Below the pieces are notes generated by a model that was not told the origin of the DNA, made no database searches, and was given only the letters and a program-made list of their open reading frames with translations. Of a stretch of DNA of 64,000 nucleotides, positions 5,683 through 55,364 are shown in pieces. The stretch lies in NCBI GenBank assembly GCA_902783835.1, contig CACZSN010000006.1, positions 1-64,000 of the forward strand. Direction: 5' to 3'. The position numbers and the translations under genes were made by a program. Numbering within the stretch: position 1 is the stretch's first letter; every line of letters begins with the position of its first letter. The stretch comes from an uncultured bacterium. Lineage in GTDB: Bacteria; Cyanobacteriota; Vampirovibrionia; Gastranaerophilales; Gastranaerophilaceae.

Positions 5683-7443
5683 ATGGGAATAGGCAGTAAT
5701 ATCTCGAAAGTCAATAATATCGGGATTAATCACTATATAAAGCAAAAAGAAAATTCGGCTGAAAATAACAAAAGTATGCCGAAGCAAACTTATGCTGCCT
5801 ACCCGTCAGGACAACTTTTGAAAGCCATGTTTGTTGGCGAAAAAAAAATTGACGAGCAAACGCAAAACATTGATAAAATTAAAAATACATCGTTTGCCGA
5901 TAAATTGGAAGATTACGAAATTGATGCTCTTTCGGGCATGATGAAATCCGACAACAAAAATTCAAAAGCCGTAAATGGCTTAATCGACCTGATTGAAAGC
6001 GGTTTGGTTCCGAACCATACAATTTATTATTCAAGCAAACATTCTGATATTCAACCTAATATTGCAAACGACATAGAACTTATGCAACAGGCAAAAGCAA
6101 CAGGCACACCTATTGAGGACTTAATCGTTCCGAAGTTTGAAACAGCGGAAGATGCACGCAAAAACGCTAAAACGGGTGACGTTTACAATATTGGCGACGA
6201 AAATAATGTTTATATTAAAACTGATGATGAAAACTCAAAACAGTTAAAATTTGACAAAGAAACTTACTTGAAACTTTTTCCGCCGGTAGAAAGATTTTGC
6301 ACTTTTCAATCTCGAATCGGTGATTGTTACTTGATTTCAATGCTTGATACTCTGTATCAGAACCCCGAAACGAGGGTGAAGATTTTGGATTGTTTCGAGC
6401 AAGACGGAAAAGACGTCAAAGCAAAACTTCCTAACAAAGATGTGTCTTTCGTTGCAAAGGATTGCAAACTTTTTGACAAAACAGAAGATAATCCGCAAAA
6501 AGGAATTTACAACAGAGGTGCGGAAGGGTTAAAAATTCTTGAACATCTTTATGGCGATTTTCGTGTTCAAAAAAGTATTGAAGATGCAAAAACACAAACT
6601 TACAAAAAAATCGACAATACGTTTTTTGAGCAACTTGACTATGAAGATGATAAAAGATTTTATACCGATGCAAAACAAGGCTCAAATGACAGAATAGCAC
6701 ATGCTAAGGCTGAACTTGATTACTTACAAAATGGCGGAAATATTCCGAAATCAGCAGGTTTCTCAAGAGAAGACAGAATTACAATGTTAAAAGAAACAAT
6801 TGCGGATGATGAAATATCTATAAAAGAATATAATAAACAACTTCAAACCGAAGAACCGGATACTGACAAAAAAATGGGACGTCAACTCAAAAGAAAAGAC
6901 CAATTGTTGGAAACCGCTAAAAATCCTGAAAATTTTTGGGCTGAAAGAAATCTAAGCAAAACGAAAGTTTACAAAAATGATGACGACTCTTTTCTCAACT
7001 GCGTATTCACTTTTGAGGAAGATGAAGACGGTGTCATTCTTGACGGAATGAAAGAAAAACTTCAAGCACAAAACAAAAATTACTTGAACGTTGGAGCTAT
7101 GTTCCGTGAAGCAGGTTATCAAGATGAAATTTTTAAAGCTTTTGATATGGCAGCGTATAAGATTTTTACGAAAGATGAAAACTTTGAATCTAAATTGAAA
7201 GAACAAATGTCTCAAGGTGTCATATTTGCGGCTGCTTCAAAAGCTGAAATAGAAAATGAAAATAAAATGACTCAAGATTATAACATCGTGTCGAGTCATG
7301 CCTATGGTGCAACACCTTATGTGGACGATAACGACAAGATTCGGATTAAAGTTGTAAATCCTTGGAGTACAACGTTTAGTACGGATTTATCTCTCGAAGA
7401 ATTTCAGAATAATTTTAGCAGATTAATTTATGCAAAAAAATAA
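5683..7443 (+). CDS. Calpain-like (family C2) cysteine protease
   Basis: This 586-residue protein carries what looks like a full calpain catalytic set. FQSRIGDCYLISMLDTLYQ gives the oxyanion Gln209 and nucleophile Cys215, SSHAYGA gives His539, and VNPWS gives Asn559. The order Q-C-H-N and the HAY and NPW motifs are typical of calpains. About 320 residues separate the Cys and His lobes, more than in a minimal calpain core, and include a charged helical segment (about 325-410). The N-terminal 200 residues are polar and without a signal peptide or calcium-binding motif. It stands alone with a GAGAGG SD. Bacterial calpains are rare and mostly uncharacterised; the substrate is unknown. Confidence 0.75.
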   Translation: MGIGSNISKVNNIGINHYIKQKENSAENNKSMPKQTYAAYPSGQLLKAMFVGEKKIDEQTQNIDKIKNTSFADKLEDYEIDALSGMMKSDNKNSKAVNGLIDLIESGLVPNHTIYYSSKHSDIQPNIANDIELMQQAKATGTPIEDLIVPKFETAEDARKNAKTGDVYNIGDENNVYIKTDDENSKQLKFDKETYLKLFPPVERFCTFQSRIGDCYLISMLDTLYQNPETRVKILDCFEQDGKDVKAKLPNKDVSFVAKDCKLFDKTEDNPQKGIYNRGAEGLKILEHLYGDFRVQKSIEDAKTQTYKKIDNTFFEQLDYEDDKRFYTDAKQGSNDRIAHAKAELDYLQNGGNIPKSAGFSREDRITMLKETIADDEISIKEYNKQLQTEEPDTDKKMGRQLKRKDQLLETAKNPENFWAERNLSKTKVYKNDDDSFLNCVFTFEEDEDGVILDGMKEKLQAQNKNYLNVGAMFREAGYQDEIFKAFDMAAYKIFTKDENFESKLKEQMSQGVIFAAASKAEIENENKMTQDYNIVSSHAYGATPYVDDNDKIRIKVVNPWSTTFSTDLSLEEFQNNFSRLIYAKK

Positions 7444-37324: not shown

Positions 37325-37432
37325 TAGTGAAAACTAGTTGGAACCGAATAGTCTCTGACCTCCGCAGGTTTTATGAGTTGAGGCATATTGCATAATGTTT
37401 ATGTTATTATAAAAGTACGAGGAGTTTATTGC

Positions 37433-38278
37433 ATGGATAAAGATTTAACTATATTTGAGGGACAACGTATTAGACATATTTATGATGAAGAAAAAGAAGT
37501 TTATTATTTTTCAGTTGTAGATATTGTTGCCATTCTAATTGATAAAGATTATCAAAGTGCAAGAAAATACTGGAACAAATTAGCTCAACGCCTACGGGAA
37601 GAGGGTTCTGAACAAACGGTGACAAATTGTCACCAGTTGAAAATGCTAGCAGATGACGGGAAAATGCGTAAGACTGATGTTGCCGATATTAAAACTGTTT
37701 TCCGTATCATTCAGTCGATTCCTTCCAAGAAAGCTGAACCTATCAAACAATGGTTGGCTAAAGTTGGACAAGAACGTATTTTGGAAATGGCAGACCCAAC
37801 AACGGCAATAGATAGGGCTAGGGAAACTTATAAAAAACTAGGTCGTTCTGATAAATGGATTCAACAAAGAATGACGGGACAAGAAACAAGAAATAAACTC
37901 ACTGATTACTGGAAAGACCATGAAATTACAAAGAATGAAGAATTTGCAATCTTAACAAACATAATACATCAAGAGTGGAGTGGACTAAGTGTTAAAGAAC
38001 ATAAACAATTAAAGAATTTAAAATCTCAAAACTTACGAGACCATATGAGTGAAGCTGAACTTATTTTTACAGCCTTAGCAGAGCTTTCAACAAGGCAAAT
38101 TGCAGAATCCGAAAACTCTACAGGGCTAGAAGAAAATAAAAAATCCGCCAAACGTGGTGGTAAAATAGCGAAAGAGGCAAAAGAAAAACTCGAATTGGAA
38201 ACTGGAAAGAAGGTTGTAACAGGAGAAAACTTTATTCCCCAACAGAAACGGCAAATCAAAAATAAAGATGAGATTTGA
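37433..38278 (+). CDS. BRO-N / DinD-like protein (antirepressor family)
   Basis: This 281-residue protein resembles the BRO family N-terminal domain proteins often annotated as phage antirepressor or DNA-damage-inducible protein D. The segment VYYFSVVDIVAILIDKDYQS and ARKYWNKLAQRLREEGSEQ is the BRO-N core. KMRKTDVADIKTVFRIIQSI and KAEPIKQWLAKVGQERI continue it, and the C-terminal half is typical of the longer DinD-like group (GRSDKWIQQRM, NLRDHMSEAELIFTALAEL, KRGGKIAKEAKEKLE). ATG 37433 has CGAGGAG 8 bases upstream. It heads a four-gene operon in the element; a sensor or regulatory role is inferred. Confidence 0.8.
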   Translation: MDKDLTIFEGQRIRHIYDEEKEVYYFSVVDIVAILIDKDYQSARKYWNKLAQRLREEGSEQTVTNCHQLKMLADDGKMRKTDVADIKTVFRIIQSIPSKKAEPIKQWLAKVGQERILEMADPTTAIDRARETYKKLGRSDKWIQQRMTGQETRNKLTDYWKDHEITKNEEFAILTNIIHQEWSGLSVKEHKQLKNLKSQNLRDHMSEAELIFTALAELSTRQIAESENSTGLEENKKSAKRGGKIAKEAKEKLELETGKKVVTGENFIPQQKRQIKNKDEI

Positions 38279-38312
38279 AATTAAACGCAATAATCAAAAA
38301 GGAAAAAACTTT

Positions 38313-40121
38313 ATGTCATTATTGGAAATTCAAGAATATTTAGAAAGCAATGTTAAAATATTAGACCATTTATATAAATTTGCCGAATTTATATCATCTA
38401 AAAAATCTGAAGACATTTCAGCTACTGATATAACAAAATTTGATATTGAAAATAGTATTTTTTCAATAATTGAGCATATCAAAACTAAACGTTTAGATTG
38501 GATGGTTAAATCTTATGAAATTATTTCACAAGATTACAATTACGTTATTCAAAGAATAAAACAAACAAAAAATCCATTATTAAAAGCTATTTACTCTGAA
38601 ATATTATATTATTCTGATGAACAAAAATATAAAACCTATATTCAGCAGGCGGTAGAAAGTTATTACGAAGTATTAGATAGATTTTGCATTGAATTATCAA
38701 ATAAATCGACTGATGATTTTATTCATAGCATGATAGATGTTATGAGAAAACTTATACATCTAGCAGTTAAGTCTAAAACCTCAAAGTTAAAGGATATAAA
38801 AAAACTAATTTTAAAAATTATTCAAGTAGATAGTAATGTTAAATTGTATCACTATCTGATTGTTTCTATTATTGAATTGATGTTTGAATATAATAAAACC
38901 TTTAAAAAAAATGATTTTGATGGTGTTGATGATATTTTTTGGAACCTAGTTCAGTTAAAGCTAAAAGAGAAAAATTATCACTATTTAATAAATATAATTC
39001 CTAAATATGGTAATAAAATTGATGAAAAAAGAGGGAAACTATCATATCCTTGGGATGAAGTGTTAGGGAAATGTTTTATAAAAGCAATGGAAAAAGCTGA
39101 TTCTAATCTAACCGCAAGACATTGGTGTATAGATGCAATAAAACACTATACAAGATTAAATAAGTATACAAATAAAATAAAACAACTAGAGCAAAAATAC
39201 ATATCTTTTAAAGATAAATTAGAGTTTACAGAGTTTAAAGAAAATATTGATACTAAACCATTTACAGATGCTGCTGAAGAGATTTTAATGCATTCTCCTA
39301 TAGAAATTTTTAAAATATTATCAGTATCTAATGATTTATACACATCATTAGAGAGTTTAAAAACTCAAGGTGGTGTATTTGATGATATCTTCCCCACCTC
39401 ATATCTTGACCATAATTTGCATCCTTCCAAAATATCATCATTGAAAACTGAACAGGATTTGTATCTTACTAATTATAAATGGTACTGGCAATTATATCAG
39501 ATAACGATACAATACATTCTTATTGAGGGAATTAGGAATAAAAAAATTAAGTTACAAGACTTAATAAATTTTTTGATGAGTTATAGTAGCTTTTTTGATT
39601 TAATAACTACATCCCAATCAAAGAAAAAGCGTTTACGATATAACTGGAGTGCAACTATTATCTCAATTTTTGAGACATATTTCAACGAAATTGAAAAGAG
39701 TTTTGAAGCTCCTAAAAAGTATTATCCTTATTTAGTAACAATAACAGAAAGCCTTGTCCTTAAATTTGAAACTTGGATAAGACATTACCTAGCCTGTTAT
39801 AAACAACCAACTATATCCTCTTTACCTCAAGAAAATGGTATTATTAGAGAAAAAGATTTAAATTATCTTTTATATGATGAATTTATCATTGAGAAATTTG
39901 ATTTTAATGATTTATTATATTTTAGGTATTTATTTATAGCCAAAGAAGGCTGGAATTTACGTAATGAAATTGCACATGGCGTTTTAATTCCTGAACAATA
40001 TACTGTTGAATTATTTAATTGGGTATTTTTTGCATTTTTACGCTTAGCAAAATACGATTTTCCTACGGCTGAAAGAAATCGACTTGTGAAAAACAGAAAA
40101 CAACGATTATTAAAATTATAA
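38313..40121 (+). CDS. DUF4209-like protein with HEPN-type RxxxxH motif
   Basis: The 602-residue, largely helical protein ends in a region resembling DUF4209: LYFRYLFIAKEGWNLRNEIA followed by HGVLIPEQYTVELF. The RNEIAH hexad (Arg550 to His555) matches the R-x4-6-H signature of HEPN ribonucleases found in toxins and anti-phage systems. The first 500 residues are helical repeat-like with no known domain. AAAAGGA precedes ATG 38313. It is 34 bp after the BRO-like gene and 12 bp before the HNH gene. An RNase effector is a hypothesis. Confidence 0.7.
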   Translation: MSLLEIQEYLESNVKILDHLYKFAEFISSKKSEDISATDITKFDIENSIFSIIEHIKTKRLDWMVKSYEIISQDYNYVIQRIKQTKNPLLKAIYSEILYYSDEQKYKTYIQQAVESYYEVLDRFCIELSNKSTDDFIHSMIDVMRKLIHLAVKSKTSKLKDIKKLILKIIQVDSNVKLYHYLIVSIIELMFEYNKTFKKNDFDGVDDIFWNLVQLKLKEKNYHYLINIIPKYGNKIDEKRGKLSYPWDEVLGKCFIKAMEKADSNLTARHWCIDAIKHYTRLNKYTNKIKQLEQKYISFKDKLEFTEFKENIDTKPFTDAAEEILMHSPIEIFKILSVSNDLYTSLESLKTQGGVFDDIFPTSYLDHNLHPSKISSLKTEQDLYLTNYKWYWQLYQITIQYILIEGIRNKKIKLQDLINFLMSYSSFFDLITTSQSKKKRLRYNWSATIISIFETYFNEIEKSFEAPKKYYPYLVTITESLVLKFETWIRHYLACYKQPTISSLPQENGIIREKDLNYLLYDEFIIEKFDFNDLLYFRYLFIAKEGWNLRNEIAHGVLIPEQYTVELFNWVFFAFLRLAKYDFPTAERNRLVKNRKQRLLKL

Positions 40122-40133
40122 TAAGGAATTAAT

Positions 40134-40832
40134 ATGACACAGTGTATTTATTATAAAAATAAAACAGGCTTAACCTTTAACAAACGAGAACATATTTTCC
40201 CTAAAGCTATTGGAGGAATAGAAAGGCTTGATAATGGTGTTGTATCTGACCAAGCTAATGAATTTTTTGCAAATAATCTTGAAGTAAAAACTCTCCGTAC
40301 ATCTGAGGTTTTTGTAGGTCGTTTTGTAAATGGATATAATAAAAAGCCTAGTAAAGAAAAAAAGAAAAATAGAACCTTGCCCGAATATTTATATAATAGA
40401 GAGATTGATTCAAGAACATTAGGCAAGATAGCTTTTAACGTATTAGCGAAGATTAAAGGTAAGGATTATGTATTAAAACCAGAATTTGACGAATTTAGAA
40501 ATTGGATAATAGGCGGAAACAATGATTGGTATCATTGTAAAATGGGAAAAGAGATTATTGCAAGTACACAAATAATGCCAAATCAGTCTCATTATTGTGT
40601 GTTTGTAGATGATGGAGAATATTTAATCGCGGATATTTGCCTATACAATTATTGGAGAAAAATGTTCGGTATCTGTAAAAAATTTGATGATAATTTTGTT
40701 ATTCCGCAAGGTTATATTTGCGATTGGAATAATAAAAGAGAGTTTACCCTTATAGATTTAATGCATGAAATTGCAAATGAAGAAGAATATAAATATTTAA
40801 AATCAAAGGAGAATAGCAATGCTTTGGGATAA
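40134..40832 (+). CDS. HNH endonuclease-like protein with degenerate zinc site
   Basis: This 232-residue protein begins CIYYKNKTGLTFNKREHIFP followed by KAIGG, resembling the HNH_5-type pattern C-x2-C ... EHI-x-P-x-x-x-GG. In a typical member the first motif is CIYC and a later CxxC sits before a Asn; here these read CIYY and SDQAN, so zinc-binding Cys residues are lost while the catalytic EH is kept. The C-terminal 150 residues match nothing I know. AAGGA precedes ATG. It overlaps the next gene by 14 bp. Confidence 0.65.
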   Translation: MTQCIYYKNKTGLTFNKREHIFPKAIGGIERLDNGVVSDQANEFFANNLEVKTLRTSEVFVGRFVNGYNKKPSKEKKKNRTLPEYLYNREIDSRTLGKIAFNVLAKIKGKDYVLKPEFDEFRNWIIGGNNDWYHCKMGKEIIASTQIMPNQSHYCVFVDDGEYLIADICLYNYWRKMFGICKKFDDNFVIPQGYICDWNNKREFTLIDLMHEIANEEEYKYLKSKENSNALG

Positions 40833-41970
40833 TTTGTCGGCATCGATAGAGAATGATTACATAGATTTTAAGCAGGAGTGGTACACTAATGATAAACTAG
40901 GCGACGTTGATATGATACACGACATATTATGTATGAGTAACTCACTTACAGATAGTTTTGACAGGTATATTGTCATTGGTATAGAAGAAGATAAATCTAC
41001 AAAAGAGAAAATAATTCATGATGTAAGTGCAGATAATAATTGCCGACAAAGTGCTGATGTCATTCAAGCTTTAAGAAATTATATGTCAGTTATTCCCAAT
41101 ATTGAGTTAATAAGAGAACAAACCGATAGTGGATATATTGATATTATAAAAATTATGCCAGTTGCTAGGGAATTGCCGTATGTTTTAAATAAAGAGTGTC
41201 AAGCTCAGAAACCTAATGGTAAAAAAGTTACAGTTAGGAAAGAATGGATATATTCAAGAAATTCGGATAGAAACACACCAAAAGATGAGTGTTGCACAAA
41301 AGCAGAATTAGAAGAATTGTTTGCACGCAAGCGAGGAGAACATCTTCCTATTTTAGAAAGGTTCTCAATGTATCTTGATGATATTCATAATTGGAAACAT
41401 CCGAAAAGTGAATATGAAATAGCCGAAAGCGAAACTGCATATTACTACTCTTTGAATCATAAGTTTAAAATTGTAAGAAGTAATAGAGATTTAGACAAAA
41501 CAATATCATTATCACTTGCTAATTCTTATGATGAACTTCTTACTGATACATGTATAGGTGTAGATTATTGGAATTATCGCAATACACAAAATTATTGTTA
41601 TGATGATTGCATAAATCTTTTTAATGTAGAACTATGGGCAGATAATACATTAATAGAAGTTTTTAATATTACGGGAATGTTTATTAAGCATTTTAATTAC
41701 GATAGATATTATGGCTCTTACTATGTGCCTAATCGGATGCATTTGATTGAAAGTGATATTACTATTAATAATAGTAGCGACATAGAAAAGCTACTCGTTT
41801 GGAAAATATGTAAACTACTTTTTCATTTCAACCTATATGATGGCTGTAATTTAGTTACAGACGATGCTTCAAGAATTTTAGAAATATTAAACTATAATTA
41901 TTTACAAAATCCGAGTGAATATCGTAAACAAAATGAAGACTGGCTTTATCTACCAATTAAAAGTAAATAA
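40819..41970 (+). CDS. AlbA_2 (Schlafen-like) domain protein
   Basis: The N-terminal 130 residues fit the AlbA_2/Schlafen core: NDYIDFKQEWY, MIHDILCMSNS, DRYIVIGIEED and a VTVRKEWIYSRNSDRNTP ending. Such domains bind nucleic acid and some have RNase activity; the ExD/FKxxW face is present here. The remaining 250 residues are unassigned. ATG 40819 follows AAAGGAG inside the end of the HNH gene. It closes the four-gene operon. Confidence 0.75.
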   Translation: MLWDNLSASIENDYIDFKQEWYTNDKLGDVDMIHDILCMSNSLTDSFDRYIVIGIEEDKSTKEKIIHDVSADNNCRQSADVIQALRNYMSVIPNIELIREQTDSGYIDIIKIMPVARELPYVLNKECQAQKPNGKKVTVRKEWIYSRNSDRNTPKDECCTKAELEELFARKRGEHLPILERFSMYLDDIHNWKHPKSEYEIAESETAYYYSLNHKFKIVRSNRDLDKTISLSLANSYDELLTDTCIGVDYWNYRNTQNYCYDDCINLFNVELWADNTLIEVFNITGMFIKHFNYDRYYGSYYVPNRMHLIESDITINNSSDIEKLLVWKICKLLFHFNLYDGCNLVTDDASRILEILNYNYLQNPSEYRKQNEDWLYLPIKSK

Positions 41971-42030
41971 TAACGACAGAAAACGACTAAAATAGCTGTA
42001 TAAATTTTATATCTGCAGTAAAATATCAGT

Positions 42031-42405
42031 ATGAATTATAGTATTGAAGATTTTACAAATTATATCGGTAGTAAGACTTGGAAAAATGCCAAGACCTTTG
42101 AACATTTTGCTCCACATGAGTATGTTTTGAGTTTTCCGTGTGAAAAGTTAAAAGCAGAAAATAAATGCCCGAGCAATTGCGACATCTGCAAAGCTGAACG
42201 AAAGGCTTTTGAGGATGCTGTTATGTTTATTCGTGAAAATGGCGAGCGTGCAAAGTTTCAAAACAGAATTTATACGATGCTTTGTCTAGGCAATTATCAA
42301 TACTGGACAATGGGCGACCCGCTTGAAACAACTTGGGTACTTAACAAAGCATTAATCAATGACCCTCGCTGTAAAGTAAAAACATACTGGCTTGATAGAG
42401 TCTAA
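42031..42405 (+). CDS. Hypothetical Cys-rich protein
   Basis: This 124-residue protein has a Cys cluster (SFPCEKLKAENKCPSNCDIC) that may bind zinc and a segment NYQYWTMGDPLETTWVLNKA; I cannot name the family. A TATAAA-like -10 lies about 30 bp upstream; the SD is weak. It ends 4 bp inside the convergent PD-(D/E)XK gene, which hints at a linked pair. Confidence 0.6.
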   Translation: MNYSIEDFTNYIGSKTWKNAKTFEHFAPHEYVLSFPCEKLKAENKCPSNCDICKAERKAFEDAVMFIRENGERAKFQNRIYTMLCLGNYQYWTMGDPLETTWVLNKALINDPRCKVKTYWLDRV

Positions 42406-43436
42406 AGAAGGTCGATATACTCTTTTGCTTGTTTTATCAAGTCATCTACCATTTCAAACTCATTTGTATTACGCTTTGGATAAAGCGGTACAATCAGCAT
42501 ATCGGATTTATCAGATTTCTCTATCAAGTATTTTTTACCTTTATCATCCAAGTTGTAACGGAGTTTTGGCGAATATGTAACCCAATTATTGTTTTCATCA
42601 ATAGTCTTAAATGTCATCCAAAATGGAGTCGTTTTTCCGCAAATCCCTTTTTGCCATAAATTACAACTAAATTGAATGCTTAAGCCAGTCGAAGGATTAT
42701 CTATTCTTAAGTAGCGACAGTACCCGCCTTTTTGTGGAGTAGCTTTAACACCTTTTGAATTACAAATTTTATGAATTAAAAGACTATCAGCAATTTTGTC
42801 AACAATTCTGTAGTAATCTACGATGCGATTTGCCATGTTAGAACTTAAATCACCTGCTGAAAACGGCTTAAAATCCTGATTATTCATTTCTCCAGTAAGC
42901 CCTTTTAACTGTAGTAAATCATTATACAAAGTATCTTCCTGTAAAACATTATCAAGTAGATTAAGAACTTCTTCCCAAGATAAAACAAGCATTGGAGGCT
43001 TGCCGTCTTTTTGTAATAATCTGCCTTGTGGTTTCTCGTATTCAGCAGAAGCGGCAAGTTCATCAACAAGCGATATAATTCTTGATTTAGGACATACAAA
43101 TATAAGTCCTTTCCCACCTTTTTTCTGTAATCGCTCAAGGTAGGTATTAGGCTGATTGTCAGTCAGATTTGCCCAAAACTTCATTTCAAAAATTAAGATT
43201 TCATCATTATGTGTATTCCTTAAAGACATATCAGGTCTTTCAAGATTTTCTCCGCATGATTGAAGCTCAAAATGCAAGTCTTTTTCAAACAGGAGACCTA
43301 ATTCAGTTCCAATATAGTCCAATAAAGTATCACGAGCAGTTGTTGAATTTTGCAGGATATAATGCAGGCTCATTGTTGCAATATCTTCAGTTGATGTTCC
43401 AACACTATTAGCAATATGACACAATAATAAACTCAT
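42402..43436 (-). CDS. PD-(D/E)XK superfamily nuclease-like protein
   Basis: This 344-residue protein has the core ERPDMSLRNTHNDEILIFEM followed by KFWANLTDNQPNTYLERL. Pro68-Asp69 and Glu84-x-Lys86 give the PD-x(14)-ExK site, and the following LTDNQ-x-x-Y resembles nuclease-like proteins in mobile and defence loci. The last 180 residues are of unknown type and might be a sensor. It is the only major minus-strand gene in the element. AAAGGAGA precedes ATG 43436. Confidence 0.75.
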   Translation of the reverse strand: MSLLLCHIANSVGTSTEDIATMSLHYILQNSTTARDTLLDYIGTELGLLFEKDLHFELQSCGENLERPDMSLRNTHNDEILIFEMKFWANLTDNQPNTYLERLQKKGGKGLIFVCPKSRIISLVDELAASAEYEKPQGRLLQKDGKPPMLVLSWEEVLNLLDNVLQEDTLYNDLLQLKGLTGEMNNQDFKPFSAGDLSSNMANRIVDYYRIVDKIADSLLIHKICNSKGVKATPQKGGYCRYLRIDNPSTGLSIQFSCNLWQKGICGKTTPFWMTFKTIDENNNWVTYSPKLRYNLDDKGKKYLIEKSDKSDMLIVPLYPKRNTNEFEMVDDLIKQAKEYIDLL

Positions 43437-43604
43437 TACATTCTCCTTTCAAGTTCAACTGTAAAAATAAGTAAAATCTCTAATTCAAAATGATTATATC
43501 TTAACTGAAACAATTTTATCAAGCTAAAACTCCATTTTGAATTTATGTAAATTAACATTTTAATTTAATACCATGATGTTGATGCTTAAATTGAGGTATT
43601 GACA

Positions 43605-43919
43605 GTGGATAACAGAAAATTATTAGGTTTAAGAATAAAAGAATTACGCAAAAGAGCTTCACTAAGTCAGGAAGTTCTAGCAGAAAAAGCAGGAATTGAG
43701 CCAACATCACTTAGTAATATTGAAAATGGGAGAAATTTCCCGTCATTTATTACATTGGAAAATATTATGCGGGTATTGAATGTCGGGTATTTTGATGTAT
43801 TTCAGTTTGCACAATATGCACCCGCTGATGATTTAATCCAAGAAATCACAACAATTTTAAAAGATAATCCTGAACGAGTAAAAGATGCTTATAAAATTAT
43901 AAAAGCTCTTGTTGATTAA
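43605..43919 (+). CDS. XRE-family regulator of the element
   Basis: The 104-residue protein has an N-terminal HTH: IKELRKRASLSQEVLAEKAG and IEPTSLSNIENGRNFPS, plus a short helical tail (DLIQEITTILKDNPERVKDA). GTG 43605 is chosen because GAGG lies 8 bases upstream; TTG 43599 is too close. It is divergent from the nuclease gene and may control it or the recombinase module. Confidence 0.85.
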   Translation: MDNRKLLGLRIKELRKRASLSQEVLAEKAGIEPTSLSNIENGRNFPSFITLENIMRVLNVGYFDVFQFAQYAPADDLIQEITTILKDNPERVKDAYKIIKALVD

Positions 43920-43982
43920 TTTAACGGTGGCTGACGGTGGAGTTTGTAAAATTTTATTAAACTTCTAAAGAATTATACTTGT

Positions 43983-44019
43983 ATGTATATTTTAACTATG
44001 TTAATATAAAAATATACAT
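43983..44019. promoter_or_regulatory. Inverted repeat upstream of the MerR-like gene
   Basis: ATGTATATTTT (43983-43993) and AAAATATACAT (44009-44019) are perfect 11-bp arms 15 bp apart, followed by TATAAT at 44025-44030. It is a likely operator. Confidence 0.5.
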
Positions 44020-44049
44020 TAGTGTATAATTTCAAAAGAGGTTATTAAT

Positions 44050-44922
44050 ATGACTAGTTCTAAAAACTCAAATAACATAAGTCAAAAGACATTTTTACAA
44101 ATTCATTCTCTTTTAGAATTTGATAACATAGTTGGAACTAATGTTTATAATAAGACTTTTGCAGAGGTTGAGAATATTAATGAACCTCGTTACTATCCGC
44201 AACAGATTATTAAATTAATACCTGAAATAACATCACGGAAATTAAATGATTGGGATGCAAAAGGTTTACTCGTACAACATCGTCAAAGTGATAACGGTTG
44301 GCGCTTGTTTTCTCTTGCAGATGTTATTCGCTTAAGGATTATTCAAGATTTAAAAACTTACGGGATGTCAAATATCCAAATTCAAAAGACTTTAAACGAT
44401 ATTTTTGAATCAAACGACATGAAACGACAGTATTTATTCGAAACCTTTTTAAATGTATGTGCAACAGCAAGAAAGGTTGTTATTATTGTAGAATTTGATG
44501 GAAGTGCATCGTTCTATTTAGAAGATACTGCTTATGTTAATTTAAAAATGGATAAAAGCTGTTGTAAACCTGTTTTAATTCTTCCGTTTTACGACTACTG
44601 TATGCCGTTTATGCCCCATAATGGGTATAAAATGGCTATAACTACCGCTGAGATTGTAAACGAGCAAAGTAGGGCAAGGATTGATGCCGTAGCCGATAAA
44701 TTAATTAATAATGAAAATAAAAACATTAACATAGAACGAAAAAATACTAGAGGAAAAGAGTATTTAATAATGAAAACAACATCAACTGAGACAAATTTAA
44801 ATTTGTCACCTAAAGAGTTGATGAATAGGATTAAAAGTAAACCTTATACAAAAACAATACCTTTTGTTGATGAAAATGGAGCAATGTCTATAACAACAGA
44901 GGTAACGGATAAAATTAAATAA
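44050..44922 (+). CDS. MerR-like HTH protein
   Basis: The 290-residue protein has a MerR-type winged HTH at about 45-115: RYYPQQIIKLIPEITSRKLN, then a GLLVQHRQSDNGWRLFSLAD segment (wing) and VIRLRIIQDLKTYGMSNIQI. A C-terminal domain of 170 residues is unassigned. GAGG precedes ATG. Its position before two small genes and the recombinase suggests control of excision or transfer. Confidence 0.75.
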   Translation: MTSSKNSNNISQKTFLQIHSLLEFDNIVGTNVYNKTFAEVENINEPRYYPQQIIKLIPEITSRKLNDWDAKGLLVQHRQSDNGWRLFSLADVIRLRIIQDLKTYGMSNIQIQKTLNDIFESNDMKRQYLFETFLNVCATARKVVIIVEFDGSASFYLEDTAYVNLKMDKSCCKPVLILPFYDYCMPFMPHNGYKMAITTAEIVNEQSRARIDAVADKLINNENKNINIERKNTRGKEYLIMKTTSTETNLNLSPKELMNRIKSKPYTKTIPFVDENGAMSITTEVTDKIK

Positions 44923-45027
44923 ATTCAGTGGCTAAAAAATAGAGCTGAATTATTCGGATAACAAAATATTTTAAGGCGGCAACAAGAGACGTTGAACCTT
45001 AATACAAAAGCAAAAGGATGGATAACC

Positions 45028-45210
45028 ATGCTTAGTATTAAGGCGTGCAGACATAGTCTTAGAAAGTATGCCAAAGATTTAGATGATAGTGAAGTTGAGG
45101 CTATCAGAGATTTAATGTACCAATTAGCATTTGTTATGGTAGAAGATTACCTGAATAAATGCTCTAAAATTGTGCCGATTACGGCGGAAAGGAACACAAA
45201 TGAAAAATGA
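45028..45210 (+). CDS. Small hypothetical protein of the element
   Basis: A 60-residue helical protein (SLRKYAKDLDDSEVEAIRDL) with AAAGGA upstream of ATG 45028. It overlaps the next gene by 11 bp in another frame, which supports expression. No family known. Confidence 0.6.
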   Translation: MLSIKACRHSLRKYAKDLDDSEVEAIRDLMYQLAFVMVEDYLNKCSKIVPITAERNTNEK

Positions 45211-45379
45211 CGATTTTTTGAAGTTATTAGAAGACCCTGAGTTCAGAAATTCTCCGTTAGGTGAACTCCAAGCTACCTTGCAGGAGGCTTTTAAGCAGTA
45301 TGAATGGCGAATAAGAAGTGAACGCATAAAAGCGGGTATTAGAGAAGCAAAATTAAGAAAGGCAGGTAAGGCGAAGTAA
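45200..45379 (+). CDS. Small basic protein resembling a serine-recombinase helix
   Basis: This 59-residue protein ends in YEWRIRSERIKAGIREAKLR, which resembles the alphaE helix segment of serine recombinases, including its neighbour's KSERVTAGMKQAFLTG. The rest is acidic-helical. AAAGGA precedes ATG 45200. It lies 28 bp before the recombinase; a role as recombination directionality factor or interaction partner is a guess. Confidence 0.65.
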   Translation: MKNDDFLKLLEDPEFRNSPLGELQATLQEAFKQYEWRIRSERIKAGIREAKLRKAGKAK

Positions 45380-45407
45380 TCCCGCCTCCTAATGAAAGGA
45401 AAAATTT

Positions 45408-46901
45408 ATGAGTAATGCAATTATTTATACAAGGGTTTCAACGAAAGAACAAGCAGAGGGTGGATATAGCTTGTCAAATCAAGACAAAGAATGTAAAAAA
45501 TTTGCTATAGATAATAAGTTTTCAATACTTAAAGTTTATGAAGAAAGAGGTGAAAGTGCAAAAACAACAGCTAGAACAGAATTACAACATTTAATGCGTT
45601 ACTGCACTCAAAATAAAAAAGAAATTGATGCACTTATTATATGGAAATTTGATAGATTAGCAAGAAACATGAAAGATTTTTATTTTTTAAATAACTATTT
45701 TAACAGTTTAAATATAAAGGTTCTTTCCGCAACAGAAGTGAATGGTGAGTCAGCAACTGAAAAATTAACTAGAAACATGTTAGGAGCCTTTGCTCAATTT
45801 GAAAATGACCAAAAATCAGAAAGAGTTACGGCTGGCATGAAACAAGCCTTTTTAACAGGTCATTGGTTGTGGAGAGCGCCAATCGGTTATATTACGAAAA
45901 ACGGTAATATTGAACCAGACCCCAAAACTGCGCATCACGTTAAAAAGATTTTCAAATTATTTTCTACAGGAATGTATGAGCAGACACAGCTTATTAAAAT
46001 TATTGAGGCTGATGGGATAAAAATTAACACTAACAGAATGTGCAGACTATTGAGAAACCCACTTTATATGGGGTATATGCATAAAAATAAGTGGTCGGAA
46101 GAACCCATTAGAGGAATTTTCGAACCACTTATTTCTGAGGCAGAATTTAAAAAAGTACAGGATATATTGAATGGCAAAAAGCCTGTTATTACCGCTTACA
46201 AGAGGAATAATCCCGAATTTCCATTAAGACAGTTCATTACCTGTCCTAATTGCAACCAACCGCTAACAGGAAGTAAATCAAAAGGAAGAAAAGAAAGATA
46301 TGCTTATTATCACTGTCATCATAAGGATTGTTGTATTAATTTCAGAATAAGAAAAGAAAAATTAGAAAAAATATTTGTAGATTACTTGAAGTTTATAAAA
46401 CCTGAACGTGATTTACTTAATTTATTTGAAGCAACGGTAAAAGATGTTTATAACGAAAAGTTATCAGTAAGGTTAAACAGCCAAAAACAGGTGCAAGATA
46501 AGTTAATTGAGCTTAAAAATAGAAAAAGTAAGTTAATTGATTTCAGATTGGATGGAACAATAAGTGAAGAGGATTATAAGTTTAAAACAAAGCAACTTGC
46601 AGAGGAAATACAAGAGCAAGAGTTCCGTTTACGTGAAGCTGACGCCGTAAGTGATGATTTAACAAAATGTCTTAAATACGCATGCAGGGCAATTTGTAAT
46701 ATTGATACAATATGGGAAAATGGGGATTTAGATTTAAAACAAAGATTGCAGAAATTAATTTTTCCTAAAGGTTTGATGTACTATTCAAACGATTTTCGAA
46801 CCGCTGAAATCTCAAGCCTATTCATTAAAAAAGACGCCTCATTGGCGTCTTATAATAATATGGTACCCCCAAGCGAATTCGAATCGCTGCCGCCTCCGTG
46901 A
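45408..46901 (+). CDS. Large serine recombinase (integrase of the element)
   Basis: This 497-codon recombinase has the resolvase domain (IIYTRVSTKEQAEGGYSLSN with catalytic Ser9 in the RVST motif, then LIIWKFDRLARN), the SERVTAGMKQAF helix, a recombinase domain (APIGYITKNG, NPLYMGYMHKN), a zinc ribbon (CPNC ... CHHKDC), and a coiled coil (about 350-415). The last 13 codons, from 46860, lie in the repeat and the antisense of tRNA-Glu, so the natural C-terminus in the excised form should differ. AAGGA precedes ATG. Confidence 0.93.
   Translation: MSNAIIYTRVSTKEQAEGGYSLSNQDKECKKFAIDNKFSILKVYEERGESAKTTARTELQHLMRYCTQNKKEIDALIIWKFDRLARNMKDFYFLNNYFNSLNIKVLSATEVNGESATEKLTRNMLGAFAQFENDQKSERVTAGMKQAFLTGHWLWRAPIGYITKNGNIEPDPKTAHHVKKIFKLFSTGMYEQTQLIKIIEADGIKINTNRMCRLLRNPLYMGYMHKNKWSEEPIRGIFEPLISEAEFKKVQDILNGKKPVITAYKRNNPEFPLRQFITCPNCNQPLTGSKSKGRKERYAYYHCHHKDCCINFRIRKEKLEKIFVDYLKFIKPERDLLNLFEATVKDVYNEKLSVRLNSQKQVQDKLIELKNRKSKLIDFRLDGTISEEDYKFKTKQLAEEIQEQEFRLREADAVSDDLTKCLKYACRAICNIDTIWENGDLDLKQRLQKLIFPKGLMYYSNDFRTAEISSLFIKKDASLASYNNMVPPSEFESLPPP
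46827..46851 (-). terminator. Element-borne terminator for tRNA-Glu
   Basis: On the minus strand AAGACGCC and GGCGTCTT with a 5-nt loop and T run. It lies about 10 bp beyond the tRNA 3' end but inside the recombinase coding sequence, replacing the terminator displaced to 37287. Confidence 0.85.
46860..46869 (+). repeat. Right attachment repeat (attR core)
   Basis: ATGGTACCCC, identical to 37315-37324. It covers the CCA end and the last acceptor-stem bases of tRNA-Glu. Confidence 0.7.
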
Positions 46902-51494: not shown

Positions 51495-52277
51495 CTAAAA
51501 TATATTTGCGTAGCTCAAGAAATAATCATTAATGACACCGAACAATTTCGGTAGCAAAACCGCAAGCAAAAACGCACCCATTACAGGCTTAAACAGGAAG
51601 CTTAATTGGAAAACGTTAATTTGCGGAGCAGTTTTTGAAATGATACCCAAGATGATATCCTGTCCCAAAGTTGCGAGCAAAACGGGAGAAGCAAACTGCA
51701 AGCCGATATACAGAATATTAGATGTAATTTTAATCAAATATTCTTTATTAATAACCTGTTCAATGGGCAACGCTTGAGCGTATAACGGGCAAATGTCGAA
51801 ACTTCTTATAAAAGCATTCAACATCCAATAGACACCGCCCATATTGATAAAAATAATCAATCCGAGCAACCCCAAAAATTTACCCATAATTGAAACTTGT
51901 GTTGATGATGTCGGATCGAGAACCATAGCGGAAGACATACCCATTTGCGTATTAATCATATCACCGCCGGCATCGACAACCGCTACAATACAGTAACCGA
52001 TATAACCTATAATTGCACCGAAAACGTAATTAATAGCCATATAATAGATAATTGAAGCATTGGCAGGGGGCATTTCGGGTTTGATTATCGACATCAAAAA
52101 TACCGTAAGCAAAACCGCAAACCCCATTCTGATTGTATTTGGAATTTCGCTTCTGTTTAACAAAGGGGCAAATCTCATCATGCCAGCAACACGCATAAAG
52201 ATTAAAAATCCGCCGCCCAAAGCATTATTTATGACAGGCAAATAAGTTGCCATTCCATCGACAAATTGTTCAATCAC
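51495..52277 (-). CDS. fliR: Flagellar export component FliR
   Basis: FliR/SctT (260 residues) has about six membrane spans: FLIFMRVAGMMRFAPLLNRS near the start, then EIPNTIRMGFAVLLTVFL, and the conserved ending QINVFQLSFLFKPVMGAFLL. It sits in the export gate of flagellar or injectisome type III secretion. It starts with GTG, overlapping the upstream stop as GTGA. It is the last gene of the export operon. Confidence 0.92.
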   Translation of the reverse strand: MIEQFVDGMATYLPVINNALGGGFLIFMRVAGMMRFAPLLNRSEIPNTIRMGFAVLLTVFLMSIIKPEMPPANASIIYYMAINYVFGAIIGYIGYCIVAVVDAGGDMINTQMGMSSAMVLDPTSSTQVSIMGKFLGLLGLIIFINMGGVYWMLNAFIRSFDICPLYAQALPIEQVINKEYLIKITSNILYIGLQFASPVLLATLGQDIILGIISKTAPQINVFQLSFLFKPVMGAFLLAVLLPKLFGVINDYFLSYANIF

Positions 52278-52618
52278 GGCTTAATCCCCATAGGAAAATC
52301 AAGTTCCAAAAAAGTTGAATTTGTCTTAGCTCCGGAATTCATAATAGAAATGGAATATTCATTTATGCCTTTATCCGTTTCAATTTGAACTTTAGCATCA
52401 CCGATATTTTTCGCGGAAAAAATCAACTGACTTCCATCTCCCATATAAGTCATAACCCTTTGAGCGGAAATGATATCGGGATTATTGCTTTTAACTGATT
52501 TAACGGCATTTTCGGAGAAAAACAAATAATCCGCACCGCGGTTAAATTCATAAACCGTATCAGCAGAAGCGGAAAGTCCGAAAAACAATATAAATAAAGC
52601 AGTTAAGAACTTTTTCAT
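52274..52618 (-). CDS. Exported secretin-N/pilus-assembly-N-like protein
   Basis: The 114-residue protein has a signal peptide (MKKFLTALFILFFGLSASAD) and a domain resembling the N-terminal region of CpaC/type III secretins (SVKSNNPDIISAQRVMTYMG and IFSAKNIGDAKVQIETDKGI). In this position flagellar operons normally have no such protein. It is fused to no pore and may be a periplasmic accessory of the export apparatus. It lies 3 bp after fliQ and overlaps fliR by 4 bp. Confidence 0.65.
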   Translation of the reverse strand: MKKFLTALFILFFGLSASADTVYEFNRGADYLFFSENAVKSVKSNNPDIISAQRVMTYMGDGSQLIFSAKNIGDAKVQIETDKGINEYSISIMNSGAKTNSTFLELDFPMGIKP

Positions 52619-52621
52619 CTA

Positions 52622-53128
52622 TTATCTTCCTTGAAATCTTCTTTCGTTAATTTTCTTTTGTTCAATCAAGTTTGCTCTCGGAACGGGCATTTTGGAAGCA
52701 GCATTGTACTTCAATCTGTCATTTTCTTTTAAGAACGGAGGATTTCCCGCTGCATTCATCAAATCTCTTGCATTCGGAACATTGTCAAATCTATCCATTT
52801 GCATTTCGTCGGAAAATGGCTTGATATGTTTATAATAATCGGCATCAAGAACATATTTTTCGTTTTTGGGAATAACGTTGAAAGAAATCTGAACGGCTTC
52901 GGTAAAAAGTCCCGAAAGCATTTTTACAAAACCCGAACCCAAAACGAGGATTACAACGAAAACGGCAGTAATCTTAGGAGCGGCGGCGATGGTTTGTTCT
53001 TGAACCTGCGTAACCGCCTGCAAAATACCGACAACCAAACCTATCGCCGCCGCCGTCAATACACAGGGCAATGCAATAGAGAGCATCATTATAATTCCTT
53101 TTCCCATAAATTCGATTAATATTTCCAT
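52622..53128 (-). CDS. fliQ: Flagellar export component FliQ with long C-terminal tail
   Basis: The first 90 residues are FliQ: two spans with IALPCVLTAAAIGLVVGILQ followed by AVTQVQEQT, and FVVILVLGSGFVKMLSGLF. FliQ is normally about 90 residues; this one has 168. The extra 80 residues are hydrophilic, rich in Asn/Pro/Arg, and could contact other export proteins. It lies between fliP and the secretin-N-like gene with very short gaps. Confidence 0.9.
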   Translation of the reverse strand: MEILIEFMGKGIIMMLSIALPCVLTAAAIGLVVGILQAVTQVQEQTIAAAPKITAVFVVILVLGSGFVKMLSGLFTEAVQISFNVIPKNEKYVLDADYYKHIKPFSDEMQMDRFDNVPNARDLMNAAGNPPFLKENDRLKYNAASKMPVPRANLIEQKKINERRFQGR

Positions 53129-53141
53129 AATGAATTATCCT

Positions 53142-53786
53142 TTAGTTATAACTTGCCGCAAGACCGTGGACAACCAAACTCCAACCGTCAACCGCAATAA
53201 ATATCAGCAGTTTGAACGGCAACGAAATAATCGTCGGCGATAACATGAACATACCTAATGCCAATAGTACGTTTGCAACAACCATATCAAGTACAATGAA
53301 CGGGATATAAATAATAAAACCTATTTCAAATGCCGTTTTAAGTTCACTCAAAATAAACGCAGGAGCGACTTCCCAAATGGTGATTTCTTCAGGAGTTGCA
53401 GGAACTTTTCCCCCTCTTGATTTTTCGATGAAATACATCATATCAGTCTCTCTTGTGTTTTTCATCATAAATTCTTTCAAAGGTTTCGAACCTTCAACAA
53501 CCGCTTCTACAAGCGAACCCGACTTTTGATAAGGCTCATAGCCCGCTTCCCACATACTTTGGAACACTCCGCCCATTGAATAGAACGTCATAATAATGGA
53601 AAGTCCCAAAAGTACAATCGTCGGAGGAATTGATTGAGTACCCATTGCCTGTTTCAAAAAAGAAAATACAATCGCATACCGCATAAAACTTGTCATACAA
53701 GTAAAAATAAACGGCACAAATGCGAAACAACTCATTACCAATAAGAGTTGCAATACGGGATCTAAATTTTGTATAAGCGTATTCAT
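53142..53786 (-). CDS. fliP: Flagellar export component FliP
   Basis: This 214-residue FliP/SctR has four spans: LLLVMSCFAFVPFIFTCMTS, then FMRYAIVFSFLKQAMGTQSI and PPTIVLLGLSIIMTF. The conserved late block is ILSELKTAFEIGFIIYIPFI ending VLDMVVANVLLALGM and ISLPFKLLIFIAVDGWSLVV. It lacks the cleaved signal peptide that E. coli FliP has, more like SctR. AAAGG precedes ATG. Confidence 0.95.
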   Translation of the reverse strand: MNTLIQNLDPVLQLLLVMSCFAFVPFIFTCMTSFMRYAIVFSFLKQAMGTQSIPPTIVLLGLSIIMTFYSMGGVFQSMWEAGYEPYQKSGSLVEAVVEGSKPLKEFMMKNTRETDMMYFIEKSRGGKVPATPEEITIWEVAPAFILSELKTAFEIGFIIYIPFIVLDMVVANVLLALGMFMLSPTIISLPFKLLIFIAVDGWSLVVHGLAASYN

Positions 53787-53789
53787 TGA

Positions 53790-54188
53790 TTAAGCCTTTT
53801 TTCTTTCTTGGAATTTTTGAGGAATTTTAAACGAAAAAACCTTCTTCGCTTCATTGTTAACAACATTATTTTCCTTTTTTGTTTCGGCAACAACTTTTGC
53901 CAAAGGAGAAACTTTTGCGTTTACCAAAGGATTTTCATGACTGTCCAATTTTGCAAGCATTGTAGTCGTTTCCGCATCAGATGCGACCAAAAATCTTTCG
54001 TTGCCTGCTCTGACTACATAAATTTGCTTCTTCGGATTTAATCTCAATGCGTTTTCTATACATAAACAATCCGCAGAATTATTCATCATCGCAGGTTGAC
54101 AAAACTTTTTATAGGTAATCATGCAAACAGCCAAAAAACCGACCATCGCAAATGTATATGCTAAAAATTGAACAAAATATCCTGACAT
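53790..54188 (-). CDS. FliO-like flagellar assembly protein
   Basis: This 132-residue protein has one N-terminal span and the FliO domain core LRLNPKKQIYVVRAGNERFL followed by VASDAETTTMLAKL. FliO assists FliP ring assembly and is found only in flagella, which favours a flagellum over an injectisome. The C-terminus is a basic linker. It precedes fliP by 3 bp. Confidence 0.75.
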   Translation of the reverse strand: MSGYFVQFLAYTFAMVGFLAVCMITYKKFCQPAMMNNSADCLCIENALRLNPKKQIYVVRAGNERFLVASDAETTTMLAKLDSHENPLVNAKVSPLAKVVAETKKENNVVNNEAKKVFSFKIPQKFQERKKA

Positions 54189-54197
54189 TTTATCTCC

Positions 54198-55364
54198 TTA
54201 TATATCTTCATCTTCTATGTCAAAATCGTCATAATTAAATTCTTCACCGTTTGCAGCTTGAGGAGCTTGTTCATCGGAAGCCTTTTGAGCAGGGGCAGGT
54301 TGAGCTTGTTGACCGGCAGGTGCGGGGGCATTTTGCGTCGGTGATTCGGGTTCAATGTCCGCATATACTTCATCTACTCTTACCGCATATTTATCATTTA
54401 TAATGACCAATTCGCCCGAGGCAACAGGTTTGTTTTCAACCTTCAACATAATTTTATTTTCATAAAGCGAACCGACATCAACAATTACACCTTCTGAAAT
54501 TTGCTTCAATTCCCCAAGCGTAATCGTTACTTTTTCAAACTCCGCAGTTATATCAACAGGGATAACGTCCCACATCGTTTTGCCGCTATTGTTATTATTT
54601 TCCATATTTTCTCCTTCATCGTTGTCAACACCCATAATGATTGACGTTTCAGGGTTTATCATAAATTTTCTTGTCTGACCGTTTAATGATACCGACATCG
54701 CCTTAATATTACTGTTTTCAAGCACAACAATATCTCCGACATCAATATGTCGTACATCATATAACGTTATTTGCGATTTACCCGTGATAATTTTTACAGG
54801 TACTGTGTAATCCGCAAATGAACCCAAATCAAAATGTTGTCTCGTCGTTATAGGCTTGATTTCGGGTATCAGCGAAATAGGAACGGAAATAATATACTTT
54901 CCTAAAAATCCGCTCTCACTCTTCGCTATAAGCGTCAAATGAACTTGGTTAGTGTTTTCTTCTTCAACTATATCTTCACTTTTTACAAAAAATTGAGAAA
55001 TTCCTTTGTAAATAAAATCATTCAATTTCGTCAAAATCGTCGCTTCAAGCTCCGTCATATTTTCGGGAACAAAAGGCTCTTCGCTTTCGCCCAAACCTTT
55101 TTCCAAAATCATATCCATAAACGGTGAAGATATTCTCAAAAATACTTCGTGGGTCTTATCTGTCTTAATTCTCGTTACAAAATATTCTTCTCCGACAAAA
55201 AATACGTTATCCTGTTCCGTAATTCCGACTAACTTCAAGTCAAAATCCGTCAGCATAAATTCTCTCATCTTTTCCTTAATTCTTGTAAGCAATACTCGCT
55301 TAAACCAGTAAAATGAGCCGTTTAGTCTATTTGAAAATTTTGAATTATACTGAGAAACTACCAC
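54198..55364 (-). CDS. FliM/FliN-like switch protein with two SpoA domains
   Basis: The 388-residue protein contains two C-ring (SpoA) domains: around 185-245 (VPVKIITGKSQITLYDVRHI, DVGDIVVLEN) and around 270-335 (IPVDITAEFEKVTITLGELK). The second ends in VIINDKYAVRVDEVY, and an acidic, Pro/Gln-rich tail follows. The arrangement resembles SctQ or a FliM-FliN fusion. The CheY-binding N-terminal peptide of FliM (LSQ-x-EIDALL) is not seen. The start is uncertain: GTG 55364 with GGGG upstream, or ATG 55268 with AAGGA. It heads the export operon. Confidence 0.78.
   Translation of the reverse strand: MVVSQYNSKFSNRLNGSFYWFKRVLLTRIKEKMREFMLTDFDLKLVGITEQDNVFFVGEEYFVTRIKTDKTHEVFLRISSPFMDMILEKGLGESEEPFVPENMTELEATILTKLNDFIYKGISQFFVKSEDIVEEENTNQVHLTLIAKSESGFLGKYIISVPISLIPEIKPITTRQHFDLGSFADYTVPVKIITGKSQITLYDVRHIDVGDIVVLENSNIKAMSVSLNGQTRKFMINPETSIIMGVDNDEGENMENNNNSGKTMWDVIPVDITAEFEKVTITLGELKQISEGVIVDVGSLYENKIMLKVENKPVASGELVIINDKYAVRVDEVYADIEPESPTQNAPAPAGQQAQPAPAQKASDEQAPQAANGEEFNYDDFDIEDEDI

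What the first reader, a model, noticed from the sequence alone, without database searches (positions are those of the whole stretch)
5683..7443. Bacterial calpain-like protease with a long insert between catalytic lobes
All four expected residues (Q209, C215, H539, N559) are in place, with about 320 residues between Cys and His and no signal peptide or Ca-binding site. Calpains are rare in bacteria, and in a gut relative of predatory and symbiotic Melainabacteria an effector role is conceivable.
Basis: partly seen in the sequence, partly recalled or inferred. Interest (0 to 1): 0.52.

Follow-up and report, generated by a model that had tools for sequence, protein, structure and literature searches.

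The report
Expanded calpain-like proteases, possibly exported
A gut bacterium related to cyanobacteria carries at least eight copies of a calpain-like protein-cutting enzyme, most with a conserved polar front end that may be an export tag for a flagellum-like export machine, in a genus where no flagellar filament gene was found.

Summary
The 586-residue ORF at 5683-7443 (+) has Q209, C215, H539 and N559 in place. It matches Pfam Peptidase_C2, and a profile of it and six paralogues finds crystallised human calpains (best E 1.4e-6). The long insert is real: C-H spacing is 324 residues against 157 in calpain-9, and 156-334 (median 246) within the family. It is not a one-off. The 1.88-Mb genome holds eight family members, 126 of 286 genomes of the order have a match, and the catalytic triad is intact in 86 of 88 proteins where it could be read. 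Some relatives are giant proteins (up to 4136 residues) with EF-hand or LysM domains. Two structure predictions failed, so the fold is inferred from sequence. There is no Sec-type signal and neither calcium site is kept. Most copies share a polar N-terminal leader, also found on a 110-residue non-protease. The genome encodes a flagellum-type type III export apparatus, part of it in this window, but the genus has no detected flagellin. Most likely this is an active calpain-clan endopeptidase. Export by that apparatus as an effector is my preferred but unproven reading; a cytosolic regulatory protease is nearly as likely.

The parts
5683..7443 (+). Calpain-like (C2) cysteine peptidase gene, 586 aa
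5683..5838 (+). N-terminal leader, residues 1-52: I/V at residue 3, polar N/K/Q/S-rich spacer, conserved P41-S42-x-x-L-L-x-A-M motif
5914..6297 (+). Conserved region before the catalytic Cys, residues 78-205 (invariant L103, D130, G141, P150, G165, K179, L188, P200, R204)
6292..6330 (+). Catalytic Cys block, residues 204-216 (R204, Q209, G213, D214, C215, Y216)
6580..7032 (+). Long insert between the catalytic lobes, about residues 300-450; helices around 330-390 are the only well-predicted part of the models
7279..7371 (+). Catalytic His/Asn block, residues 533-563 (H539, N559, P560, W561)
51495..52277 (-). FliR-type export gate protein (Bac_export_1), part of the proposed exporter
   Evidence: 5.4e-52
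52622..53128 (-). FliQ-type export gate protein (Bac_export_3)
   Evidence: 9.5e-18
53142..53786 (-). FliP export gate protein
   Evidence: 8.1e-67
53790..54188 (-). FliO
   Evidence: 2.8e-6
54198..55364 (-). FliN/FliM C-terminal domain protein (C-ring)
   Evidence: 4.4e-21

Best explanation
The gene encodes an active cysteine endopeptidase of the calpain clan: C215 is the nucleophile, H539 the base, N559 orients the His, Q209 forms the oxyanion hole. This is shown by sequence conservation only; roles are taken from the known family. It is one of at least eight paralogues in the genome. A helical insert separates the two catalytic lobes and probably shapes substrate choice or activation in place of calcium (inferred). 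The uncleaved polar leader acts as a targeting tag. My preferred reading is that it is an export signal for the lineage's flagellum-type type III apparatus, which here lacks detected flagellin, so that the protease is released outside the cell or into neighbouring cells as an effector (inferred, unproven).
For: Protease: Pfam hit, calpain PDB chains found by profile, triad intact in 86 of 88, purifying selection. Family: eight members in this genome, 4-9 matching rows in each of the five genomes of the genus, with orthologous groups kept across species. Leader: I/V at residue 3 in 15 of 16 leader rows against 63 of 420 sampled genes, and a PSxxLL-type motif at residues 38-43 in 12 of 16. The N-terminal 40 residues of the eight calpains rank at the 87th-99th percentile for N/Q/S/T/P among 420 genes. 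The leader is also on a 110-aa non-calpain protein: E 1.6e-4 with a profile that did not contain it. Exporter: FliOPQR and FliN in the window; FliI, FlhA, FliH, FliF, FliE, SLT and rod proteins on contig C44. FliP in 284 of 286 genomes of the order but Flagellin_N in only 121 of 286 and 0 of 5 of the genus. Early flagellar substrates need a small non-polar residue 3-7 from the N-terminus and a spacer of about 30 residues before the gate recognition motif at 36-40 (PMC8983047, passages), which the leader layout resembles.
Against: No secretion data. The leader motif lacks the Phe of the FxxxPhi gate recognition motif; the only such match in the first 75 residues of the window protein is at 71-75, outside the usual place. 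The leader rows are mostly homologues, so their agreement is not independent evidence. FliP is nearly universal in the order, so presence cannot be correlated with calpains; calpains and flagellin are independent (48/78/73/87, Fisher p 0.23). Polar N-termini are also common among cytosolic proteins. Two of the eight own-genome copies lack the PSxxLL-type motif (L038, L039), and the EF-hand copy (L041) starts differently. The genus genomes are 81-92% complete, so flagellin could be missed in one, less likely in five. No conserved chaperone-like neighbour was seen.
Confidence: 0.42

Rival explanations
1. A cytosolic regulatory endopeptidase, as most calpains are: it makes limited cuts in the bacterium's own proteins, and the leader is a regulatory or docking tail.
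For: No signal peptide or hydrophobic N-terminus. Single genes with unrelated housekeeping neighbours. Strong purifying selection and orthologous groups kept across the genus.
Against: Copy number and presence vary widely (126 of 286 genomes). The leader is shared with a non-protease. Relatives are giant proteins with LysM or EF-hand domains, features usual in envelope or extracellular proteins.
Confidence: 0.38
2. An exported protease, but by another route, such as type IV pilus or type IV secretion machinery or an unknown system that reads the leader.
For: The leader-bearing 110-aa protein lies next to a PilT-like T2SSE ATPase. Vampirovibrio is proposed to use a type IV secretion system on prey (PMC4451040, passages).
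Against: Type IV secretion genes were not searched in this genome. The neighbourhood is one gene pair.
Confidence: 0.15
3. A non-catalytic calpain homologue (binding or scaffold role).
For: Known in the family: 29 of 267 homologues in Rawlings 2015.
Against: Triad intact in 86 of 88 and the oxyanion Gln in 97 of the 101 residues read at its column.
Confidence: 0.05

Closest known systems
Calpain catalytic core (MEROPS C2, PF00648), e.g. human calpain-9 and calpain-1
   Same: Q..GDC, HAY and NPW catalytic blocks; profile E 1.4e-6 to PDB 2p0r
   Different: Insert of about 165 residues between Cys and His, no conserved Ca sites, only 27 residues after the catalytic Asn, no recognised further domain, polar N-terminal leader
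Bacterial calpains (Rawlings 2015, PMC4631099; abstract, sections 9, 10, 11 and 14, and passages seen)
   Same: Peptidase domain C-terminal, no full Ca sites, chromosomal, lengths from about 260 to thousands of residues
   Different: There rare (67 homologues, seven phyla); here at least eight paralogues in one genome and matches in 126 of 286 genomes of an order. The words searched for this lineage (Melaina, CAG, uncultured) do not occur in that paper
Cyanobacterial calpains (PMC9380684; abstract and passages seen)
   Same: Related lineage, CysPc core
   Different: Those often carry PPC domains; Melainabacteria are not mentioned
Early flagellar type III substrates (PMC8983047; passages seen)
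   Same: Small non-polar residue near the N-terminus, long spacer, short motif near residue 40
   Different: No Phe in the motif; enzyme rather than rod or hook subunit; export not shown

Membership tests
Calpain clan peptidase (C2, PF00648) | Profile match above curated cut-off | tested here: met
   27.7 against 23.8 bits; 20.3 in the six-frame scan; PDB calpains by a 7-row profile
Calpain clan peptidase (C2, PF00648) | Gln, Cys, His, Asn catalytic residues in order | tested here: met
   86 of 88 relatives keep C/H/N
Calpain clan peptidase (C2, PF00648) | Papain-like fold bringing C215, H539 and N559 together | tested here: inconclusive
   two AlphaFold2 jobs on 2-row alignments, mean pLDDT 37.6 and 42.1
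Calpain clan peptidase (C2, PF00648) | Proteolytic activity | not testable with these tools
   needs an assay
Classical Ca-dependent calpain | Two Ca sites in the protease core | tested here: not met
   Site residues from PMC4631099 placed by the alignment and by counting: Asp96 position is C206, Glu292 position is F565, and the last site-2 residues lie beyond the C-terminus. Active-site numbering of rat calpain 2 is recalled
Classical Ca-dependent calpain | C2-like and penta-EF-hand domains | tested here: not met
   only Peptidase_C2 found in P0001
Flagellar-type type III substrate | Export apparatus present in the genome | tested here: met
Flagellar-type type III substrate | Small non-polar residue within 3-7 of the N-terminus and a spacer of 30 or so | tested here: met
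   I3, I7, motif at 41
Flagellar-type type III substrate | Gate recognition motif FxxxPhi at about 36-53 | tested here: not met
   PSGQLLKAM at 41-49 has no Phe; own rod-type proteins have FxxxPhi at 42-53. That the motif reads FxxxPhi is recalled
Flagellar-type type III substrate | Export dependent on the apparatus | not testable with these tools
   needs genetics in a cultured or surrogate strain

The most novel reading that the evidence does not exclude
Much of this gut order has kept the flagellar type III export machine without a flagellin gene and uses it as a protein exporter; an expanded, diversified family of calpain-like proteases, tagged with a two-part N-terminal leader shared with unrelated proteins, is among its cargo.
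Probability: 0.3. Interest if true: 0.82.

Novelty: new variant of a known kind. Interest (0 to 1): 0.52.

Why it matters
Bacterial calpains were described as rare genes of unknown role. Here one is part of an expanded, catalytically conserved family in gut bacteria whose lifestyle is unknown. If the leader is an export tag, the near-universal but often flagellin-less flagellar apparatus of this order, so far read in print as loss or genome reduction (MEL.A1 in PMC3787301; Soo 2014, PMC4040986; passages seen), would be a working secretion system, and this family a first set of candidate cargo to test.

Tried and rejected

Mobile origin: no match in phages or plasmids, none encoding a relative in viral contigs.

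Conserved operon partner: none seen around the copies.

FxG start motif: a loose regex hit 15 of 368 genes against 36 of 2944 internal Met; not decisive and dropped. A stricter leader regex hit 7 of 467 N-termini, of which 4 are calpains and one is a pilin-like false hit, against 0 of 2117 internal Met; it was written after seeing the calpains, so it is not a fair test.

Calpain presence against flagellin presence: no association.

Script crashed after the 2x2 table; the spacing part was rerun. NCBIfam gave no hit; single-sequence PDB search gave none.

Literature: 'calpain' with 'Melainabacteria' 0 papers, with 'Gastranaerophil' 0 papers, in the open-licence library only; 'Gastranaerophilales' with 'type III secretion' gave 2 papers, unrelated by title and abstract start.

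Full report
WHAT IS THERE. The ORF at 5683-7443 (+) encodes 586 residues. Pfam finds only Peptidase_C2, 27.7 bits over a cut-off of 23.8, matching the His/Asn half. The six-frame scan of the genome gave 20.3 bits at the same locus, under the cut-off. NCBIfam and a single-sequence PDB search gave nothing. A profile of the protein and six paralogues found ten PDB sequences at E up to 10, all calpains, the best being calpain-9 2p0r at 1.4e-6, with HAY and NPW aligned and a weaker Q..GDC block. I take membership of the calpain clan as settled by sequence; the fold was not confirmed.

THE FAMILY. The genome (1,878,002 bases, 92% complete) holds seven more members: one 67% identical over its whole length on C19, five at 30-36% in their best segments, and one with an EF-hand on C34. 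The same PF00648 search matched 30 of 59 genomes (the window's own included) at E <= 0.01, 11 of them over the cut-off. The profile matched 126 of 286 genomes drawn from the order, 34 of 50 genera. Within the genus the five genomes gave 8, 9, 6, 8 and 4 matching rows, some of them fragments at contig ends. A tree of 27 rows puts the window gene beside its C19 copy and the rumen MAG copy, and shows other paralogue groups kept across species; several deep branches are weak or long. The nearest named record, RUG841 (68%), shares the downstream gene with the C19 copy, so the window gene is a duplicate.

CATALYTIC CONSERVATION. Over the fetched loci, 112 ORFs carried a domain at E <= 1e-5, 102 after merging by their last 40 residues. 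Cys was present in 102 of 102, His in 90 of 91, Asn in 87 of 88, and the triad in 86 of 88. The two exceptions are a D for N and one apparent E for H that has a His two residues on. Loci were cut at different places, so at least three proteins are counted twice. dN/dS is 0.12-0.19 in six pairs; synonymous sites are near saturation in most.

THE INSERT. Cys-His spacing runs from 156 to 334, median 246, over 91 measured domains. The window protein has 324, calpain-9 157 (counted). So the insert is real, shared with the close copies, and near one end of a continuum; the short forms equal classical calpain spacing. Only its helices, about residues 330-390, were predicted with confidence.

CALCIUM AND SIGNAL PEPTIDE. 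Set against the residues listed by Rawlings, neither core site is kept: C206 stands for Asp96, F565 for Glu292, and only 27 residues follow N559. The N-terminus has no hydrophobic segment (6th percentile of 420 genes).

THE LEADER. Most long-form copies start with M-x-I/V, then about 30 polar residues, then a P-S-x-x-L-L-x-A-M-like motif. I/V is at residue 3 in 15 of 16 rows against 63 of 420 sampled genes, and the motif lies at 38-43 in 12 of 16. The rows are related, so this is conservation, not independent recurrence. Recurrence is shown by a 110-residue non-calpain protein, found at E 1.6e-4 by a profile without it, with relatives in two other genomes of the genus. Weaker leader-like starts sit on other non-calpain proteins and on an M2/M3-type metallopeptidase (L146). 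These weak cases are leads only; in a scan of 480 own N-termini, apart from calpains, only one start reached E 0.002.

THE EXPORTER. The window carries FliO, P, Q, R and a FliN-like protein. Contig C44 carries FliI with a T3SS ATPase C-terminal domain, FlhA, FliH, FliF, FliE, a lytic transglycosylase and rod proteins. FlhA and FliF are in 5 of 5 genomes of the genus and flagellin in 0 of 5. Over 286 genomes of the order FliP is in 284 and Flagellin_N in 121; the two without FliP also lack flagellin, so 163 have FliP without flagellin. Earlier papers noted partial flagellar sets and read them as loss or non-motility (PMC3787301, PMC4040986, PMC5877343; passages). In Salmonella, early flagellar substrates need a small non-polar residue near the N-terminus and a spacer of about 30 residues before a docking motif at 36-40 (PMC8983047, passages). 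The calpain leader has that layout but not the Phe of the docking motif.

JUDGEMENT. Active calpain-clan protease: about 0.9. Exported by the type III apparatus: about 0.4, by layout and company rather than by test. A cytosolic role is nearly as likely.

Noticed in passing
window 51495-55364 (-) and L141 6560-16789: Flagellum-type type III export apparatus with rod genes; FliP in 284 of 286 genomes of the order, flagellin in 121 of 286 and 0 of 5 of the genus.
   Followed up: partly
L073 6549-18959, L076 3719-14074, L078 7132-15876: Giant relatives of 2914-4136 residues: EF-hands near the N-terminus, LysM near residue 350-400 in two of them, calpain domain near residue 2000-2450; one has a second calpain-type Cys block.
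   Followed up: partly
L098 1501-1833: 110-aa protein with the calpain leader and no known domain, next to a PilT-like ATPase; relatives in two other genomes of the genus.
   Followed up: partly
L146 300-2027 (-): M2/M3-type metallopeptidase (PF01432 3e-18, PF01401 2e-11) with a polar leader-like N-terminus.
   Followed up: no
L041 6719-8320: Eighth own-genome calpain-like protein carries an EF-hand upstream of the protease domain and a different N-terminus.
   Followed up: no
window 52274-52618 (-): 114-aa ORF between the fliR and fliQ genes, with a signal-peptide-like start and no Pfam match.
   Followed up: no
window 37388-46901: Run of ORFs of unusual make-up ending in what looks like a serine recombinase start (45408), possibly an integrated element; read by eye only.
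   Followed up: no
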